Shown here: positions 8,177 to 54,530 of the stretch, piece by piece | How positions within the stretch are numbered: position 1 is the first letter of the stretch | Layout: each line of letters starts with the position of its first letter | NCBI RefSeq assembly: GCF_003612555.1 | Contig: NZ_RAZF01000010.1 | Span: 1 to 64,000 of the forward strand | From: Acutalibacter sp. 1XD8-33 | GTDB lineage: Bacteria; Bacillota; Clostridia; Oscillospirales; Acutalibacteraceae | Length of the DNA stretch: 64,000 nt | Direction: 5' to 3' | Notes under the pieces: model-generated | What the model was told of the DNA's origin: nothing | What the model saw: only the letters and a program-made list of their open reading frames with translations | Databases searched by the model: none | Made by a program: the position numbers and the translations under genes

Positions 8177-8494
8177 ATGACAAAGGAGCTTTTGGAGCGG
8201 CACGCGGATACCTGCGAGGAGATCGGGGAGTTGGAGCGCCAGTGGAAAGCCCTGCCCCTGCGGGAGATGCTTTCCTTCCAGGAACAGCACGGGGAGCGGA
8301 TGGCTCAGTTGGTGGCCTCTAAAATGGAGACGGAGGCCTTCGCCGGTTCGCTGCCCTGGGACAAGCGAAAGCTGGTGCGGGCGGTGATGAAGCACGGCCC
8401 CCGCTGGGACCTGGTCCGCCGGGAAATCCACAGCATGAAATCCCCGGACGCGCTGCGCATGGAGTATAACCGGATATTTGAAAACAATTTGTAA
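8177..8494 (+). CDS. phage protein, unknown function
   Basis: 105 aa from ATG 8177 (AGGAGG 7 bases upstream); the longer frame to 8129 lies within the previous gene. Helical and highly charged; the second half (KRKLVRAVMKHGPRWDLVRREI) is basic and could bind nucleic acid, with a SANT/Myb-like feel that I cannot confirm. It is the last protein gene before the RNA-like block. Confidence 0.5.
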   Translation: MTKELLERHADTCEEIGELERQWKALPLREMLSFQEQHGERMAQLVASKMETEAFAGSLPWDKRKLVRAVMKHGPRWDLVRREIHSMKSPDALRMEYNRIFENNL

Positions 8495-8620
8495 ACTTTT
8501 TGCATTTGTTCGTTTTGTTCGTTTTGTTCGCCTATCGTAAAAGGTGTGAAAGAGAGTACAAGAAGTGTTTTCCTTTCTAAATCCGCCCCGGTTTTTCCTG
8601 TTTTCCCGGGGCGGGGAGAT
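8495..8620 (+). other. intergenic stretch with short repeats and a GC-rich hairpin
   Basis: Contains a triplicated TTCGTTTTG-type repeat (about 8508-8530) and a hairpin with arms CGCCCCGG and CCCGGGGCG (about 8584-8614). It leads straight into the tRNA-like element and could hold its promoter and processing signals. No gene seen. Confidence 0.4.
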
Positions 8621-8732
8621 GCCGCCGTAGCTCAGTGGCAGAGCGGTGGAGACGAAGGAAGCGTCAACAGGCGCTGGGCGAGAACGCCGTTATCCACTCC
8701 GCGGGCCCCCGGTTCAAATCCGGGCGGCGGCA
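8621..8732 (+). tRNA. tRNA-like gene with enlarged anticodon domain
   Basis: Canonical tRNA parts are present: acceptor GCCGCCG (8621-8627) pairs with CGGCGGC (8725-8731), D-arm GCTC...GAGC (8630-8644), and a perfect T-arm CCCGG-TTCAAAT-CCGGG (8708-8724). The anticodon stem GTGGA/TCCAC (8646-8650 / 8693-8697) closes 42 bases instead of 7. That insert can fold into two hairpins (GACG-7nt-CGTC and GGCG-11nt-CGCC). No normal 7-base loop with U33 is obvious, so no amino acid is assigned. It could be a tRNA with an insertion, a decoy for anticodon nucleases, or part of a larger RNA. CCA is not encoded. Confidence 0.55.
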
Positions 8733-8741
8733 AACAATTCC

Positions 8742-9372
8742 CCCGCGCGGGGTTATCTCAGCTGGGCCGCTCCCATCCGTGAAAGCCGGACGCAACTCAT
8801 GCGATTAGAAGGGACGCCGGTACGCCGCTGCAAGATGCGTACACGATATGCGGGCCATTTGGCGCATGAGCCTATGGCTGGCACCAGTGTGGTCTTGGAT
8901 AATCGGAAAGAGGAAAAGCAGTTAAGCGCGATAATTGCTGAACTCCGGAAGAAGAACAAGGGCGTGTGATAATTGTACAATAAGCGCACGTCAGGCTTTG
9001 TGCCAAGCCACATAATATTCACGGCGCAGGTTGCCGGGGCAGCTCCCTGCAGGGTTCAAGTCCCTGGCCGTGGACGCTGTGCAGAGCGGGCGGGTCGCGA
9101 GCCGCTAATCTGCAATCACGGCATATGGGACGCGCACGGTGTGGTGAAGGGCGGCCGCCTGGTAGGGAGTGCGCAGTGCCGGAGAGGTCGAGAGGGAGAG
9201 TATCTGGCAAATATGTGCGGTGGCGGAATAGGTAGACGCATAATTTTCTGCGTTTTGTAAAACTTGCAATTCCGGTTCGAATCCGGCGGAGCGCTTGAAC
9301 ACAAGAGCTTTGTGCGAAAACGCAGGCGAATTGCATGAGCAGATGCGGGGTGCAAATCCCTGCCCGCGCGGG
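8742..9372 (+). ncRNA. candidate giant structured RNA with tRNA-like ends
   Basis: A 631-base block without a convincing protein gene between two coding operons. Its two ends (8742-8751 and 9363-9372) form a perfect 10-bp closing helix of CCCGCGCGGG. The 5' end continues as a D-arm-like TTATCTCAGCTGG and the 3' end is preceded by a T-arm-like CGGGG-TGCAAAT-CCCTG (about 9346-9362). Inside are a T-armed minihelix (9019-9074), a tRNA-Leu-type D-arm (TGGCGGAATAGGTAGACGC, about 9220) and another T-arm (CCGG-TTCGAAT-CCGG, 9272-9286). Size, phage setting and tRNA proximity recall the large phage RNAs GOLLD and ROOL, but I cannot confirm membership; degenerate tRNA genes are the alternative. Confidence 0.45.
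9019..9074 (+). ncRNA. T-armed tRNA minihelix inside the structured block
   Basis: TCACGGC (9019-9025) pairs with GCCGTGG (9067-9073), a 7-bp acceptor-like stem with one wobble. It is stacked directly on a perfect T-arm CAGGG-TTCAAGT-CCCTG (9050-9066), with A9074 in the discriminator position. Only 24 bases, one hairpin, replace the D and anticodon arms. Geometry fits a substrate for tRNA-processing or CCA-adding enzymes; that is inference. Confidence 0.4.
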
Positions 9373-9486
9373 ATATGTGGGCCCTTCCGGGCATGACCGG
9401 GGGGCGCGGGACATAAGGGAAGCACAGGCGGAAAGCATGAAAGCCCTGAATGACAGCCCGGCTCAGAAATCAAAAGGTAAAGGAAA
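9373..9486. other. short intergenic tail before the antirepressor gene
   Basis: GC-rich with a possible hairpin CCGG-GCATGA-CCGG (about 9388-9401), then a stretch leading to an AAAGGTAAAGGAAA ribosome-binding region before the antirepressor gene. No gene seen. Confidence 0.35.
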
Positions 9487-10284
9487 ATGGAAATGAATGA
9501 GATGCAGATTTATCAGGACCCTCGGTTCGGCCAGATGCGAGCCTTTCTCCGGGATGGGGAGCCCTGGTTTGTGGCGGCGGACGTGTGCGCGGCGCTGGAA
9601 ATCAAGAACGGAAGGGACGCCATGACCCGTCTGGATGAGGATGAAAAGGGCGTCGCTTCAACCGACACCCCCGGCGGCTCCCAGAAAATGTCCATTGTCA
9701 ACGAGCCCGGCCTTTACTCCCTGGTGCTGGGCAGCCGTAAGCCGGAGAGCAAGGCCTTCAAGCGGTGGATTACTCATGATGTGATCCCCAGTATCCGCCG
9801 CCACGGGCTCTACGCCACGGAATCCACCATAGAGGCCATGCTGGGGGACCCGGACACGGCCATCCGCCTTTTGCAGGAGGTGAAGCGGGAGCGGGCGCGG
9901 TCCAGGGCCCTGTCCGCGAAGGTGGAAGAGGACCGGCCCAAGGTGCTGTTCGCGGATTCGGTGGCGGCCTCCAACACCTCCATCCTTGTGGGGGAGCTGG
10001 CTAAGCTGCTGAGGCAGAACGGGGTGCAGACGGGCCAGAACCGGCTTTTCGCCTGGATGCGGGACAACGGGTATCTGATCCGCCGGGCGGGATCGGACTA
10101 CAACATGCCCACACAGCGGGCCATGGAGATGAGGCTTTTCGAGATCAAGGAGACCAGCGTCACCCACGCCGACGGCCATGTGAGCGTAAGCAAAACCCCG
10201 AAAGTCACCGGCAAGGGCCAGCAGTATTTTGTGGGGGTTTTTCTCGGGGACCGGCGGGAGAAGGGAAACGAATGTGGTACATAG
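9487..10284 (+). CDS. phage antirepressor, BRO-N plus ANT (KilA-C) domains
   Basis: 265 aa. Residues about 8-110 are a BRO-N domain (GEPWFVAADVCAALEIKN, then NEPGLYSLVLGSRKPESKAFKRW), and about 145-250 match the phage antirepressor C-terminal domain (LAKLLRQNGVQTGQNRLFAWMRDNGYLI). Such proteins relieve repression of lytic genes or bind DNA during induction. A short helix-rich linker (RLLQEVKRERARSRALSAK) joins them. Several in-frame ATGs lie at the start; 9487 is the first after the ribosome-binding region. The end overlaps the next gene. Confidence 0.85.
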   Translation: MEMNEMQIYQDPRFGQMRAFLRDGEPWFVAADVCAALEIKNGRDAMTRLDEDEKGVASTDTPGGSQKMSIVNEPGLYSLVLGSRKPESKAFKRWITHDVIPSIRRHGLYATESTIEAMLGDPDTAIRLLQEVKRERARSRALSAKVEEDRPKVLFADSVAASNTSILVGELAKLLRQNGVQTGQNRLFAWMRDNGYLIRRAGSDYNMPTQRAMEMRLFEIKETSVTHADGHVSVSKTPKVTGKGQQYFVGVFLGDRREKGNECGT

Positions 10285-11481: not shown

Positions 11482-11904
11482 GTGGCCCAAAGGCTGACCG
11501 ACAAAAAGAAAAAGCGGATCATTGCGGATTATGTGCAGCTGGGCAGCTACAACGCCGTCGCGAAAATGCACGGGGTAGCGGACACCACTGTAAAGCGGGT
11601 TGTTCTCGGGGATCCCCATATGCGGGAAAAAGCGGAGCAGAAAAAAGAGCAGAACACGGCGGACATTCTGGACTACATGGAAAGCCAGCGGGACGACGTG
11701 TGTAAGGTGCTGGGGATCTGCCTGGGGGAGCTGAAAAAGCCAGAGCGCTACGCCAAAACTACCCCACAGCAGATCGCCACCACCATGGCCATCCTCATAG
11801 ACAAGTACACCGCATTCGGCGGCGGGCCCAAGGAGGAGGCCGAAGAGGACGGTCTGAGCCGGAGCCTGCGGGAGCTGGGGGAGAGGCTGGAAAGCGATGA
11901 TTAG
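11482..11904 (+). CDS. terS: terminase small subunit
   Basis: 140 aa from GTG 11482. An N-terminal helix-turn-helix (KKRIIADYVQLGSYNAVAKMHGVADTTVKR region, about 10-40) is typical of PBSX-type small terminases, which bind the packaging site and hand DNA to the large subunit. The acidic C-terminus (RSLRELGERLESDD) is the usual contact for the large subunit. The stop overlaps the large-subunit start by 8 bases. Confidence 0.8.
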   Translation: MAQRLTDKKKKRIIADYVQLGSYNAVAKMHGVADTTVKRVVLGDPHMREKAEQKKEQNTADILDYMESQRDDVCKVLGICLGELKKPERYAKTTPQQIATTMAILIDKYTAFGGGPKEEAEEDGLSRSLRELGERLESDD

Positions 11905-13120
11905 CGATAAGCAAAAGAAAATTCTGGCCTTCCCCCACAGCTCCTACGAGGTTCTCATCTGCGACGGAGCGGTGCGGTCGGGCAAAACCTCTCTGATGGC
12001 CGTGGCCTTTATCGACTGGGCCATGAGGGAGTTCTCCGGCCAGAGGCTGGGGATCTGCGGGAAAACCGTGGACAGCGCCGTGAAAAACATCGTGGTCCCC
12101 TATTTGTCCATGAGCTACGCGAAAAGCCGGTACACCCTGCGCTGGCGGCGGTCCCAGAAAATTCTGGAAGTCCGCCGGGGCCGCCGGGTGAACTGGTTCG
12201 AGGTGTTCGGCGGAAAGGACGAGGCCGCTTTCATGTTGGTCCAGGGCCGCACTCTGGCCGGGGCCATGCTGGACGAAGTGGTGCTGATGCCCGAGAGCTT
12301 TGTGAATCAGGCCGTGGCCCGGTGCTCTGTGGAGGGGTCCAGGATCTGGTTTTCCTGCAACCCCGGCCCCCCCAACCACTGGTTCAAAACAGAGTGGATC
12401 GACCAGCGGGAGAAGCATAACGCCCTGTATCTGCACTTCGACCTGACGGACAACCCGGCCCTTTCCCAGAAAATCCGGGACCGCTATCAGCGCACCTATA
12501 CCGGGGTGTTCCACGACCGCTACGTGAAGGGGCTCTGGGTAGCCGCCGAGGGCAGAATCTACCCCATGTTCGACCCGGACCGCCATGTGTTGGAGGAAAT
12601 CCCCCCCACAGAGGGCCCCTGGTATGTTTCCACGGACTTCGGCATTCAGAACGCCACGGTGTTCCTCCTCTGGCGGAAGCAGGCGGACTCCGCCCGCTGG
12701 ATCTGCCTGGGGGAGTACTACTACTCCGGGGCGGAGGCCATGCGGCAGAGGACCACCGCCGAGCATGTGGAGGGCCTGCGGCGGATGCTGGACGGAATCT
12801 CCCCCAGGGCGGTGATTGTGGACCCGTCCGCCGCCCCCTTGAAGGTCCAGCTGCGCCGAGTGGGGTATCATGTGCGGGACGGGGACAACCGGGTCCTGGA
12901 GGGCCTGGACGACGTGGGAGTGCTGCTGCAGAATGATCTGCTGGCCTTCGCGCCCCAATGCGAAAACACCATCCGGGAGTTCCCCGGCTACGTGTGGGAC
13001 AGCGGGGCGGCGGCCCGGGGGGAGGACGCCCCCCTGAAGTCCGGCGACCACTGTATGGACGCGGTCCGGTATTTCGTCCGGACGCAGAAGCTGGTCCGGC
13101 GGTCCGGCCCGGCGGTTTAG
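11897..13120 (+). CDS. terL: terminase large subunit, PBSX type
   Basis: 407 aa. The packaging ATPase/nuclease of the virion operon. Walker A-type DGAVRSGKTSLMA (about 24-36), Walker B followed by acidic residue in GAMLDEVVLMP (about 121-131), and nuclease Asp residues in YVSTDFGIQNATVF (about 244), AVIVDPSA (about 309) and GDHCMDAVRY (about 390). Length is usual for PBSX/SPP1-type proteins (400-430). GC is high, matching the rest of the structural genes. Confidence 0.9.
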   Translation: MISDKQKKILAFPHSSYEVLICDGAVRSGKTSLMAVAFIDWAMREFSGQRLGICGKTVDSAVKNIVVPYLSMSYAKSRYTLRWRRSQKILEVRRGRRVNWFEVFGGKDEAAFMLVQGRTLAGAMLDEVVLMPESFVNQAVARCSVEGSRIWFSCNPGPPNHWFKTEWIDQREKHNALYLHFDLTDNPALSQKIRDRYQRTYTGVFHDRYVKGLWVAAEGRIYPMFDPDRHVLEEIPPTEGPWYVSTDFGIQNATVFLLWRKQADSARWICLGEYYYSGAEAMRQRTTAEHVEGLRRMLDGISPRAVIVDPSAAPLKVQLRRVGYHVRDGDNRVLEGLDDVGVLLQNDLLAFAPQCENTIREFPGYVWDSGAAARGEDAPLKSGDHCMDAVRYFVRTQKLVRRSGPAV

Positions 13121-54095: not shown

Positions 54096-54170
54096 TGGCT
54101 GGGCTGGCGAGATTCGAACTCACGGGTGACGGAGTCAAAGTCCGTTGCCTTACCGCTTGGCGACAGCCCA
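54096..54170 (-). tRNA. tRNA-Gln(UUG)
   Basis: Acceptor TGGGCTG/CAGCCCA, discriminator G and encoded CCA; anticodon loop CTTTGAC with TTG; T-loop TTCGAAT. Weak first pair is normal for tRNA-Gln. Confidence 0.9.
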
Positions 54171-54222
54171 ATATGCCGGGCACGGAGTCTAATCACAAAG
54201 AATTAAACTCCGTGCCCGTGTG

Positions 54223-54300
54223 TGGGGTGGAAGATGGGACTCGAACCCACGATCTCCAGAGCCACAATCTGGCGCTTTAACCAACTAAGCTACATCCACC
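54223..54300 (-). tRNA. tRNA-His(GUG)
   Basis: Acceptor GTGGATG/CTTCCAC region with C73 and encoded CCA; the extra G at -1 characteristic of tRNA-His is also encoded; anticodon GTG within GATTGTGGCTC. Confidence 0.9.
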
Positions 54301-54304
54301 ATAA

Positions 54305-54381
54305 TGGCGCGCCAAAAGGGACTCGAACCCCTGGCCTACTGCTTAGAAGGCAGTTGCTCTATCCAGCTGAGCTATTGGCGC
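54305..54381 (-). tRNA. tRNA-Arg(UCU)
   Basis: Acceptor GCGCCAA/TTGGCGC, encoded CCA, anticodon TCT in CCTTCTAAG, T-loop TTCGAGT. Confidence 0.9.
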
Positions 54382-54456
54382 ACATGAGGCATTCCCTTTG
54401 GCCTGCGTTCAAAGAGATAAAGTATGAAACAAATCGATAGGAAGCTGAAAGGAAAA

Positions 54457-54530
54457 TGGAGCGGGTGATGGGAATCGAACCCACACGACCAGCTTGGAAG
54501 GCTGGAGTTCTACCACTGAACTACACCCGC
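54457..54530 (-). tRNA. tRNA-Gly(UCC)
   Basis: Acceptor GCGGGTG/CACCCGC, encoded CCA, anticodon TCC in CCTTCCAAG, T-loop TTCGATT. First gene of the four-tRNA cluster in transcription order (Gly, Arg, His, Gln). Confidence 0.9.

What the first reader, a model, noticed from the sequence alone, without database searches (positions are those of the whole stretch)
8742..9372. Candidate giant phage RNA closed by a 10-bp helix with tRNA-like ends
A kilobase without protein genes in a dense phage genome. Its borders pair perfectly over 10 bp, and tRNA-type modules (D-arm-like 5' end, T-arm-like 3' end, further T-arms inside) are spread through it. Size near 630 nt, a phage setting and an adjacent tRNA-like gene recall the large phage RNAs ROOL and GOLLD, but the tRNA-like termini would be a feature I do not know from either.
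Basis: partly seen in the sequence, partly recalled or inferred. Interest (0 to 1): 0.75.

Follow-up and report, generated by a model that had tools for sequence, protein, structure and literature searches.

The report
Phage tRNA mimic without anticodon arm
The 3' part of this region is not the end of a giant RNA but one member of an apparently undescribed family of bacteriophage RNAs that copy the ends of a leucine tRNA while the decoding arm is replaced by a highly variable insert.

Summary
The 10-bp "closing helix" is one palindrome seen twice; a third of shuffled sequences contain such a pair. Its 3' arm is the acceptor strand of a local structure, 9214-9371: tRNA-Leu-type acceptor and D-arm, about 100 nt in place of anticodon and variable arms, then a T-arm with a 6-bp stem and UGCAAAU loop. 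A model built without the window finds it as the only hit in 64 kb (56.7 bits, E 1.7e-13). The same build occurs at 108 of 120 T-arm matches in phage contigs, with 75 different acceptor stems that covary, and in named Lactobacillus, Listeria and Enterococcus phages, mostly unannotated. An anticodon stem-loop occurs only at chance level (4 of 104 centres, against 17 of 19 genomic tRNA-Leu-type matches). Centres are hypervariable (86 clusters of 104). Upstream lie a tRNA with an expanded anticodon loop and a conserved 92-nt element. I read the family as a tRNA mimic cut out by host tRNA-maturation enzymes and carrying a variable payload; maturation and payload are inferred. ROOL and GOLLD are absent here, but two homologues lie just downstream of ROOL.

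The parts
8177..8494 (+). 105-aa ORF with weak Myb-like DNA-binding match; upstream neighbour
   Evidence: Pfam PF00249 21.2 bits, below its cut-off of 24.4; relatives in L037/L038 stand upstream of the same R1 element
8621..8732 (+). expanded tRNA: canonical acceptor, D-arm and T-arm, 47 nt where the 7-nt anticodon loop should be
   Evidence: Rfam RF00005 50.6 bits; not called by ARAGORN
8742..8751 (.). first copy of palindrome CCCGCGCGGG; proposed 5' arm of the closing helix, not supported
8854..8878 (+). hairpin GCCAUUUGGCGCAUGAGCCUAUGGC; similar hairpins stand just before gene starts in some relatives
   Evidence: by eye against L119, L132, L139, L002; no statistics made
9020..9072 (+). 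possible mini tRNA-like fold: CACGGC/GCCGUG stem with a T-arm and one further arm, no D-arm; weak
   Evidence: sequence reading; mascRNA model only 18.3 bits, E 0.95; no homologues
9121..9212 (+). R1: conserved 92-nt element with two hairpin domains, directly upstream of the TLS
   Evidence: six distinct loci, 4 of 21 predicted pairs with changes on both sides; an open reading frame in 4 of 6 is a caveat
9214..9371 (+). TLS: Leu-type tRNA-like RNA. Acceptor 9214-9220/9364-9370, D-arm 9223-9239, centre 9240-9342, T-arm 9345-9363 (6-bp stem, loop UGCAAAU), base 73 = G at 9371
   Evidence: model R2 built without it: 56.7 bits, E 1.7e-13, only hit in the window; constrained fold; family
9363..9372 (.). 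second copy of the palindrome; really last T-stem base, acceptor 3' strand, base 73 and one more base
9487..10284 (+). antirepressor (Bro-N + ANT); downstream neighbour
11897..13120 (+). terminase large subunit, start of the packaging genes

Best explanation
Window 9214-9371 belongs to a phage RNA family (here called TLS) that descends from a class II tRNA-Leu but no longer decodes. Shown: a 7-bp covarying acceptor stem, a conserved Leu-type D-arm, a T-arm lengthened to 6 bp with a UGNAAAU loop, no anticodon arm, and a hypervariable centre of about 20-180 nt. Inferred: the conserved half is there so that the host's tRNA-maturation enzymes (RNase P at the 5' end, RNase Z at the 3' end) excise it from a phage transcript and leave it folded like a tRNA, while the variable centre is the working part, a payload on a natural tRNA scaffold. 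In several temperate phages it lies between a late regulator and the packaging genes, so it would be made at the lytic switch. The window region is then a cluster of separate RNAs: expanded tRNA, noncoding stretch ending in R1, TLS.
For:: a scan on the 5' half alone gave 25 contigs; all 23 untruncated ones (17 distinct) have the matching acceptor strand and a 6-bp T-stem; control: 21 of 21 against 19 of 840 shuffled downstream stretches; a scan on the T-arm alone gave 120 matches, 108 with 6 of 7 acceptor pairs beside a D-arm, 75 distinct acceptors; all seven acceptor pairs change on both sides; 128 two-sided cells against 36.8 in shuffles and 14-27 when slid; model without the window finds it; no anticodon arm (4 of 104; shuffled 4.6%; 17 of 19 genomic tRNA-Leu-type matches have one); 86 centre clusters of 104, eight acceptors with more than one unrelated centre, five centre clusters with two acceptors; after base 73 = A the next base is T in 40 of 57, which fits RNase Z trimming (recalled); position beside late regulator genes in three named phages.
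Against: No expression or processing data. T-loop base 55 is G and base 56 varies, so the elbow that RNase P reads may be altered. The window acceptor has two G-U pairs. Rows for one search were chosen with 6 of 7 pairs required, which inflates its pairing percentage. The model R2 also scores real tRNA-Leu up to about 49 bits and some TLS with large inserts score below that. No function of any centre is known.
Confidence: 0.5

Rival explanations
1. Punctuation: the TLS is only a processing signal (as mascRNA is for MALAT1) by which RNase P trims the 3' end of a long noncoding RNA upstream and frees it from the late mRNA.
For: ROOL ends 13 nt before the TLS in L209 and about 175 nt before it, with a tRNA-Tyr-like gene between, in L175; rliG ends 4 nt before the TLS in L258 and overlaps its first 41 nt in L271. 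R1 ends 1 nt before the TLS in the window.
Against: Only 2 of 38 loci scanned have ROOL and 2 have rliG; only 25 of 77 TLS have 300 nt or more without an ORF of 80 aa upstream. R1 precedes other things in L119, L122, L124, L126 and L132. A mere signal need not carry a hypervariable, often structured centre.
Confidence: 0.2
2. Decoy: an anticodon-less tRNA that occupies host proteins which attack or bind tRNAs (for example tRNA-cleaving defence systems) and cannot itself be cut.
For: tRNA body kept, cleavable loop gone; phage setting; strong variability.
Against: No link to any defence system was looked for or found; variability lies in the part the decoy would not need.
Confidence: 0.12
3. A charged tRNA-like RNA, like tmRNA but with leucine: LeuRS and AlaRS do not need the anticodon (recalled), so it could be aminoacylated and act in translation.
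For: Leu-type D-arm; helix abutting the T-arm in 58 of 104, where a variable arm would stand.
Against: Base 73, a key LeuRS determinant (recalled), is A in only 57 of 96 and G in the window. 7+6 bp makes a 13-bp stack, a length recalled as unfavourable for EF-Tu in tRNA-Sec. No reading frame for tagging was seen; ARAGORN calls no tmRNA in the window.
Confidence: 0.07
4. Decaying tRNA genes without function.
For: Derived from tRNA-Leu; sometimes inside tRNA arrays.
Against: Two-sided acceptor changes in every pair; the same unusual T-arm in distant phages; closing helix abutting the T-arm in 58 of 104 against 89 of 520 shuffles.
Confidence: 0.05
5. The first reader's giant RNA, 8742-9372, closed by the 10-bp helix.
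For: The pairing appears in the single-sequence fold (z -1.86, 1 of 20 shuffles as good).
Against: Chance-level pairing, no distal partner in homologues (1 of 97), 3' arm used by the local acceptor stem.
Confidence: 0.03

Closest known systems
tRNA-Leu (class II tRNA)
   Same: 7-bp acceptor, GGCGGAAUAGGUAGACGC-type D-arm, T-arm; R2 also hits genomic tRNA-Leu at up to 49 bits
   Different: no anticodon arm, 6-bp T-stem, T-loop UGNAAAU, centre of 21-182 nt, base 73 not fixed
ROOL RNA (RF03087) and GOLLD
   Same: phage and prophage noncoding RNAs near tRNAs; two TLS lie just downstream of ROOL; literature: often near tRNA islands, tRNAs sometimes in the GOLLD linker (PMC12286853, passages)
   Different: no ROOL or GOLLD match in the window region; the TLS is small and tRNA-shaped
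tmRNA
   Same: tRNA-like ends with the anticodon arm replaced by other RNA (recalled)
   Different: Leu-type instead of Ala-type, complete D-arm, 6-bp T-stem, no tag frame recognised
mascRNA / MALAT1 3' end (RF01684)
   Same: tRNA-like body used as a processing signal (recalled); weak model scores nearby
   Different: 18.3 and 22.6 bits, below the cut-off of 42.5, and at other places than the TLS
bacterial tRNA-Sec
   Same: 13-bp acceptor plus T-stem stack (recalled)
   Different: 8+5 there, 7+6 here; anticodon arm there
engineered tRNA scaffolds
   Same: foreign RNA held in the place of the anticodon arm (recalled)
   Different: artificial; this would be a natural case

Membership tests
ROOL (RF03087) / GOLLD | match to the covariance model | tested here: not met
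   no match in 8490-9490 at E<=5 nor in the window at gathering score
tRNA (decoding) | anticodon stem-loop after the D-stem | tested here: not met
   4 of 104 centres, chance 4.6%; control 17 of 19; none seen in the window fold
tRNA (decoding) | acceptor stem, D-arm, T-arm | tested here: met
   with the T-stem one pair longer than canonical
tRNA-Leu | base 73 = A | tested here: not met
   G in the window; A in 57 of 96 in the family
tRNA-Leu | charged by LeuRS | not testable with these tools
   needs an assay
tmRNA | recognised tmRNA with tag reading frame | tested here: not met
   no tmRNA by ARAGORN in the window or by Rfam at E<=5 in 8490-9490
mascRNA-menRNA (RF01684) | gathering score 42.5 bits | tested here: not met
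   22.6 and 18.3 bits
TLS (this report) | match to model R2 built without the window | tested here: met
   56.7 bits, E 1.7e-13, only hit at E<=10; above the 49 bits of the best tRNA-Leu-sized hits in 299 genomes
TLS (this report) | 6-bp T-stem with UGNAAAU loop | tested here: met
   GCGGGG UGCAAAU CCCUGC at 9345-9363
RNase P / RNase Z substrate | cleavage at the acceptor ends | not testable with these tools
   needs end mapping or in vitro cleavage
intron-bearing tRNA | group I intron or anticodon arm interrupted by an intron | tested here: inconclusive
   no intron family in Rfam at E<=5, no anticodon arm at the normal place; an unknown intron type is not excluded

The most novel reading that the evidence does not exclude
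Phages of Bacillota carry a natural tRNA scaffold: a large, unannotated family of anticodon-less, tRNA-Leu-derived RNAs with a 13-bp acceptor/T stack whose exchangeable, hypervariable centres are payloads (anti-defence or regulatory RNAs) matured by the host's own tRNA enzymes at the lytic switch.
Probability: 0.4. Interest if true: 0.87.

Novelty: new variant of a known kind. Interest (0 to 1): 0.68.

Why it matters
If right, a common phage RNA has been overlooked because it falls between tRNA finders and RNA family libraries: none of the TLS in the loci scanned was called by ARAGORN or by Rfam's tRNA model (overlap check). It would be a natural case of a tRNA body used as a carrier, gives a recognisable marker beside ROOL and other phage noncoding RNAs of unknown function, and its centres are a ready list of candidate small RNAs to test in phage-host conflict.

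Tried and rejected
Homologues of the whole region: none in phages or plasmids by blastn. In 29 genus and 398 family genomes, each count including the own genome, only short patches; of the six that I printed, L002 and L006 are TLS. The antirepressor gave the own prophage (L039) and 79 other loci; R1 searched in those 79 (L040-L118) gave only one 15-bit hit, in L085. R1 in 398 family genomes: only the own genome convincing, four weak hits of 23-25 bits, with only 10 candidates scored per genome. R1 pattern in the genome collection: 8 stretches; L126, L131 and L132 are real (L131 and L132 are the contigs of L124 and L123), L127-L130 and L133 look like chance by their flanks.

R1 as protein: one frame is open in four sequences (95, 48, 96 and 70 codons, unlike each other outside R1) and 8 of 14 variable columns are third positions; it is interrupted in L122 and shifts in L126. 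Seven ORFs of the region matched no protein family above noise. I keep RNA, but coding is not wholly excluded.

Model R2 could not be used to count TLS in genomes, because host tRNA-Leu match it (240 of 299 genomes at E<=1e-5, 12 candidates scored per genome); I used it only for the score comparison.

Row choices: alignment A2 holds 34 of the 35 compact TLS listed (L245 left out) plus the window; A3 and model R2 hold 31 of those 35 (L187, L194, L225, L245 left out). Of 108 TLS, 104 could be cut into ends and centre. Of 120 T-arm matches in 119 contigs, 8 had no 6-of-7 acceptor partner by my rule (several look like TLS by eye) and 4 lay at contig ends. Gap statistics used 77 of 108.

Papers: all ten searches used; no listed title described such RNAs, but the library is open-access only. 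Seen: PMC12286853, PMC5643018 and PMC3556495, passages each; the rest as listings. The paper I recall as describing ROOL and the DUF3800 RNAs (10.1093/nar/gkx699) is not held.

Full report
WHAT WAS CLAIMED. One RNA of about 630 nt, 8742-9372, closed by a 10-bp helix and bearing tRNA-like ends. The window is part of a 3.6-Mb bacterial assembly; an IMG/VR viral record holds the identical stretch over the 12.6 kb compared, so this is a prophage.

CHECK OF THE OBSERVATION. The 990 nt between the 105-aa ORF (8177-8494) and the antirepressor (9487-10284) hold no recognisable protein: seven ORFs gave only noise in PHROGs and Pfam, and the 107-aa one nothing in tblastn on phages (best E 5) or in 200 family genomes other than its own. 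Rfam finds one thing at gathering score, a tRNA at 8621-8732 with 47 nt where the model has the 7-nt anticodon loop; ARAGORN misses it. ROOL, GOLLD and tmRNA do not appear even at E<=5. The two arms are one palindrome, CCCGCGCGGG. A 10-nt inverted pair occurs in 33% of 300 dinucleotide shuffles (mean 0.57), and the fold of 8735-9380 is only mildly better than shuffles (z -1.86, 1 of 20 as good).

HOW THE LOCAL STRUCTURE WAS FOUND. Relatives of the 105-aa ORF (L037, L038) showed a conserved 92-nt element, R1 (window 9121-9212). Its pattern led to L119-L126, L131 and L132, six distinct loci with the window. In L119 a stretch beginning GTGCGGTGGCGGAATAG, like the window just after R1, opens a tRNA-Leu-like body that ends in a T-arm and a matching acceptor strand 178 nt later. 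L002 (same genus) and L006 (same family) have the same body.

THE FAMILY. A scan for that 17-mer alone, which says nothing about the 3' half, gave 25 viral contigs. All 23 that were not truncated (17 distinct) have the complementary acceptor strand and a 6-bp T-stem; 21 have a TG.AAAT loop, one an enlarged TG loop, one TTCGAAT. As a control, the 3' half is found in 21 of 21 tested and in 19 of 840 shuffled downstream stretches. On 35 aligned rows all seven acceptor pairs change on both sides: 97.7% of cells paired (shuffled 76.2%, slid 36-44%), 128 two-sided cells (shuffled 36.8, slid 14-27). Those rows had been chosen with 6 of 7 pairing required, and the first and last two T-stem pairs were fixed by the pattern, so the percentage is inflated; the variety of acceptor pair types and the one-sided 17-mer scan are not. 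A model made from 31 of these sequences, window excluded, finds the window at 9214-9371 with 56.7 bits and nothing else at E<=10, not even the four real tRNAs at 54 kb. In 299 genomes of the phylum the tRNA-Leu-sized hits reach 49 bits; only two other places, G551 (67.3) and G713 (62.9), exceed the window. The separation is not clean for all members: TLS with large inserts score 30-50 bits (L119, L139, L144, L155, L284).

NOT A DECODING tRNA. An anticodon stem-loop right after the D-stem is present in 4 of 104 centres, as in shuffled centres (4.6%), and in 17 of 19 genomic matches with the same D-arm; one of the two exceptions, L299, itself looks like a TLS. The T-stem has one pair more than a tRNA. 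Base 73 is A in 57 of 96. No TLS is called by ARAGORN in the loci scanned, nor by RF00005 in 38 distinct loci; 39 Rfam and 9 ARAGORN hits were checked for overlap by script, the rest by eye.

THE CENTRE. Centres are 21-182 nt, median 67.5. In 58 of 104 the minimum-energy fold has a helix of 4 bp or more that abuts the T-arm, against 89 of 520 shuffles; several of the shortest are a single 8-bp hairpin. By BLAST, 104 centres fall into 86 clusters; eight acceptor sequences carry more than one unrelated centre, and five of the eleven multi-member clusters occur with two acceptors (in one of these the two differ by one base). Some members carry further hairpins in the D-loop (L119, L143, L144, L155, L167, L194, L195, L202, L217, L227; by eye).

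WHERE IT LIVES. Named phages: Lactobacillus Sha1 (between a RinA-like regulator and HNH/terminase genes), LP65 and LpeD; Enterococcus EG-TP1 (after a transcriptional activator) and EFP01; Listeria vB_LmoS_188 (after a sigma70-like gene), B054 and P70. All eight are hit by the model, LP65 at 49.1 and P70 at only 24.6 bits, both in the range of real tRNAs. Six of the eight stretches bear no annotation; LP65 orf80 and B054 gp75 overlap theirs. In bacterial genomes the T-arm pattern is rare: 2 of 398 in the phylum and 2 of 29 in the genus, the own genome counted in both; backward control 0 in the rows shown. ROOL precedes it in L209 (ROOL 667-1248, TLS 1262-1385) and, with a tRNA-Tyr-like gene between, in L175; Listeria sRNA rliG, part of prophage A118 and reported as up-regulated in macrophages (PMC3556495, one passage), precedes it by 4 nt in L258 and overlaps its first 41 nt in L271. 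These are 2 and 2 of 38 loci scanned.

MECHANISM. Shown: anatomy, covariation, loss of the decoding arm, modular variable centre. Inferred from established tRNA biology (recalled): RNase P reads acceptor, T-arm and elbow, and RNase Z trims CCA-less 3' ends, so such ends should be matured like a tRNA; a T after A73 in 40 of 57 fits. Inferred only: the centre is the useful part. The ROOL and rliG cases make processing of an upstream RNA a serious rival or second role; against it, only 25 of 77 TLS have 300 nt or more without an 80-aa ORF upstream.

WHAT THE WINDOW REGION IS. In order: expanded tRNA 8621-8732; 8733-9213, a noncoding stretch ending in R1, perhaps a separate RNA of up to about 480 nt; TLS 9214-9371; then the leader of the antirepressor gene. 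R1 has 4 of 21 predicted pairs with changes on both sides in six sequences, though single-sequence folds are only weakly better than shuffles (z 0.14 to -1.78), and a reading frame through it is open in four of six. A cluster of RNAs with tRNA-like bodies between them fits better than one closed giant RNA.

NOVELTY. The ten paper searches of an open-access library listed no description of such RNAs, so I call it a new variant of tRNA-like RNA; subscription journals and preprints were not searched. The names TLS and R1 are mine.

Noticed in passing
window 8621-8732; L202 4216-4366 and 5279-5402; L222 7661-7776: Other phage tRNAs matched by Rfam over 112-151 nt, so with large inserts: expansion is not limited to the Leu type.
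   Followed up: partly
L124 7980-8054, L132 4567-4642: tRNA genes at the place of the window's expanded tRNA; the one in L124 has an 8-nt anticodon loop (ARAGORN reads a four-base anticodon).
   Followed up: no
L119, L124, L132, L139: A second conserved stretch, GCGGGACAGAATGGGGYAAA or close to it, in the same noncoding regions.
   Followed up: no
L124 8432-8496: DUF3800-VIII RNA (Rfam) directly after R1, so R1 belongs to a neighbourhood of several phage RNAs.
   Followed up: no
L142: Four places in one phage contig score as TLS (59-69 bits), inside a tRNA array.
   Followed up: no
L167, L194, L227: Similar D-loop inserts (CCTGCGG.GAGTAGATAAGG.CGTG ... GCGCAGGTCACG) in three TLS: possibly a separate small RNA domain.
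   Followed up: no
L144, L147, L149, L150, L152: tmRNA genes called by ARAGORN a few hundred nt or less from the TLS in phage contigs.
   Followed up: no
window 8886-8969: The end of a 107-aa ORF reads like protein (VVLDNRKEEKQLSAIIAELRKKNKGV) but matches nothing.
   Followed up: partly
window 54096-54530: Four ordinary tRNA genes (Gln, His, Arg, Gly) on the minus strand.
   Followed up: no
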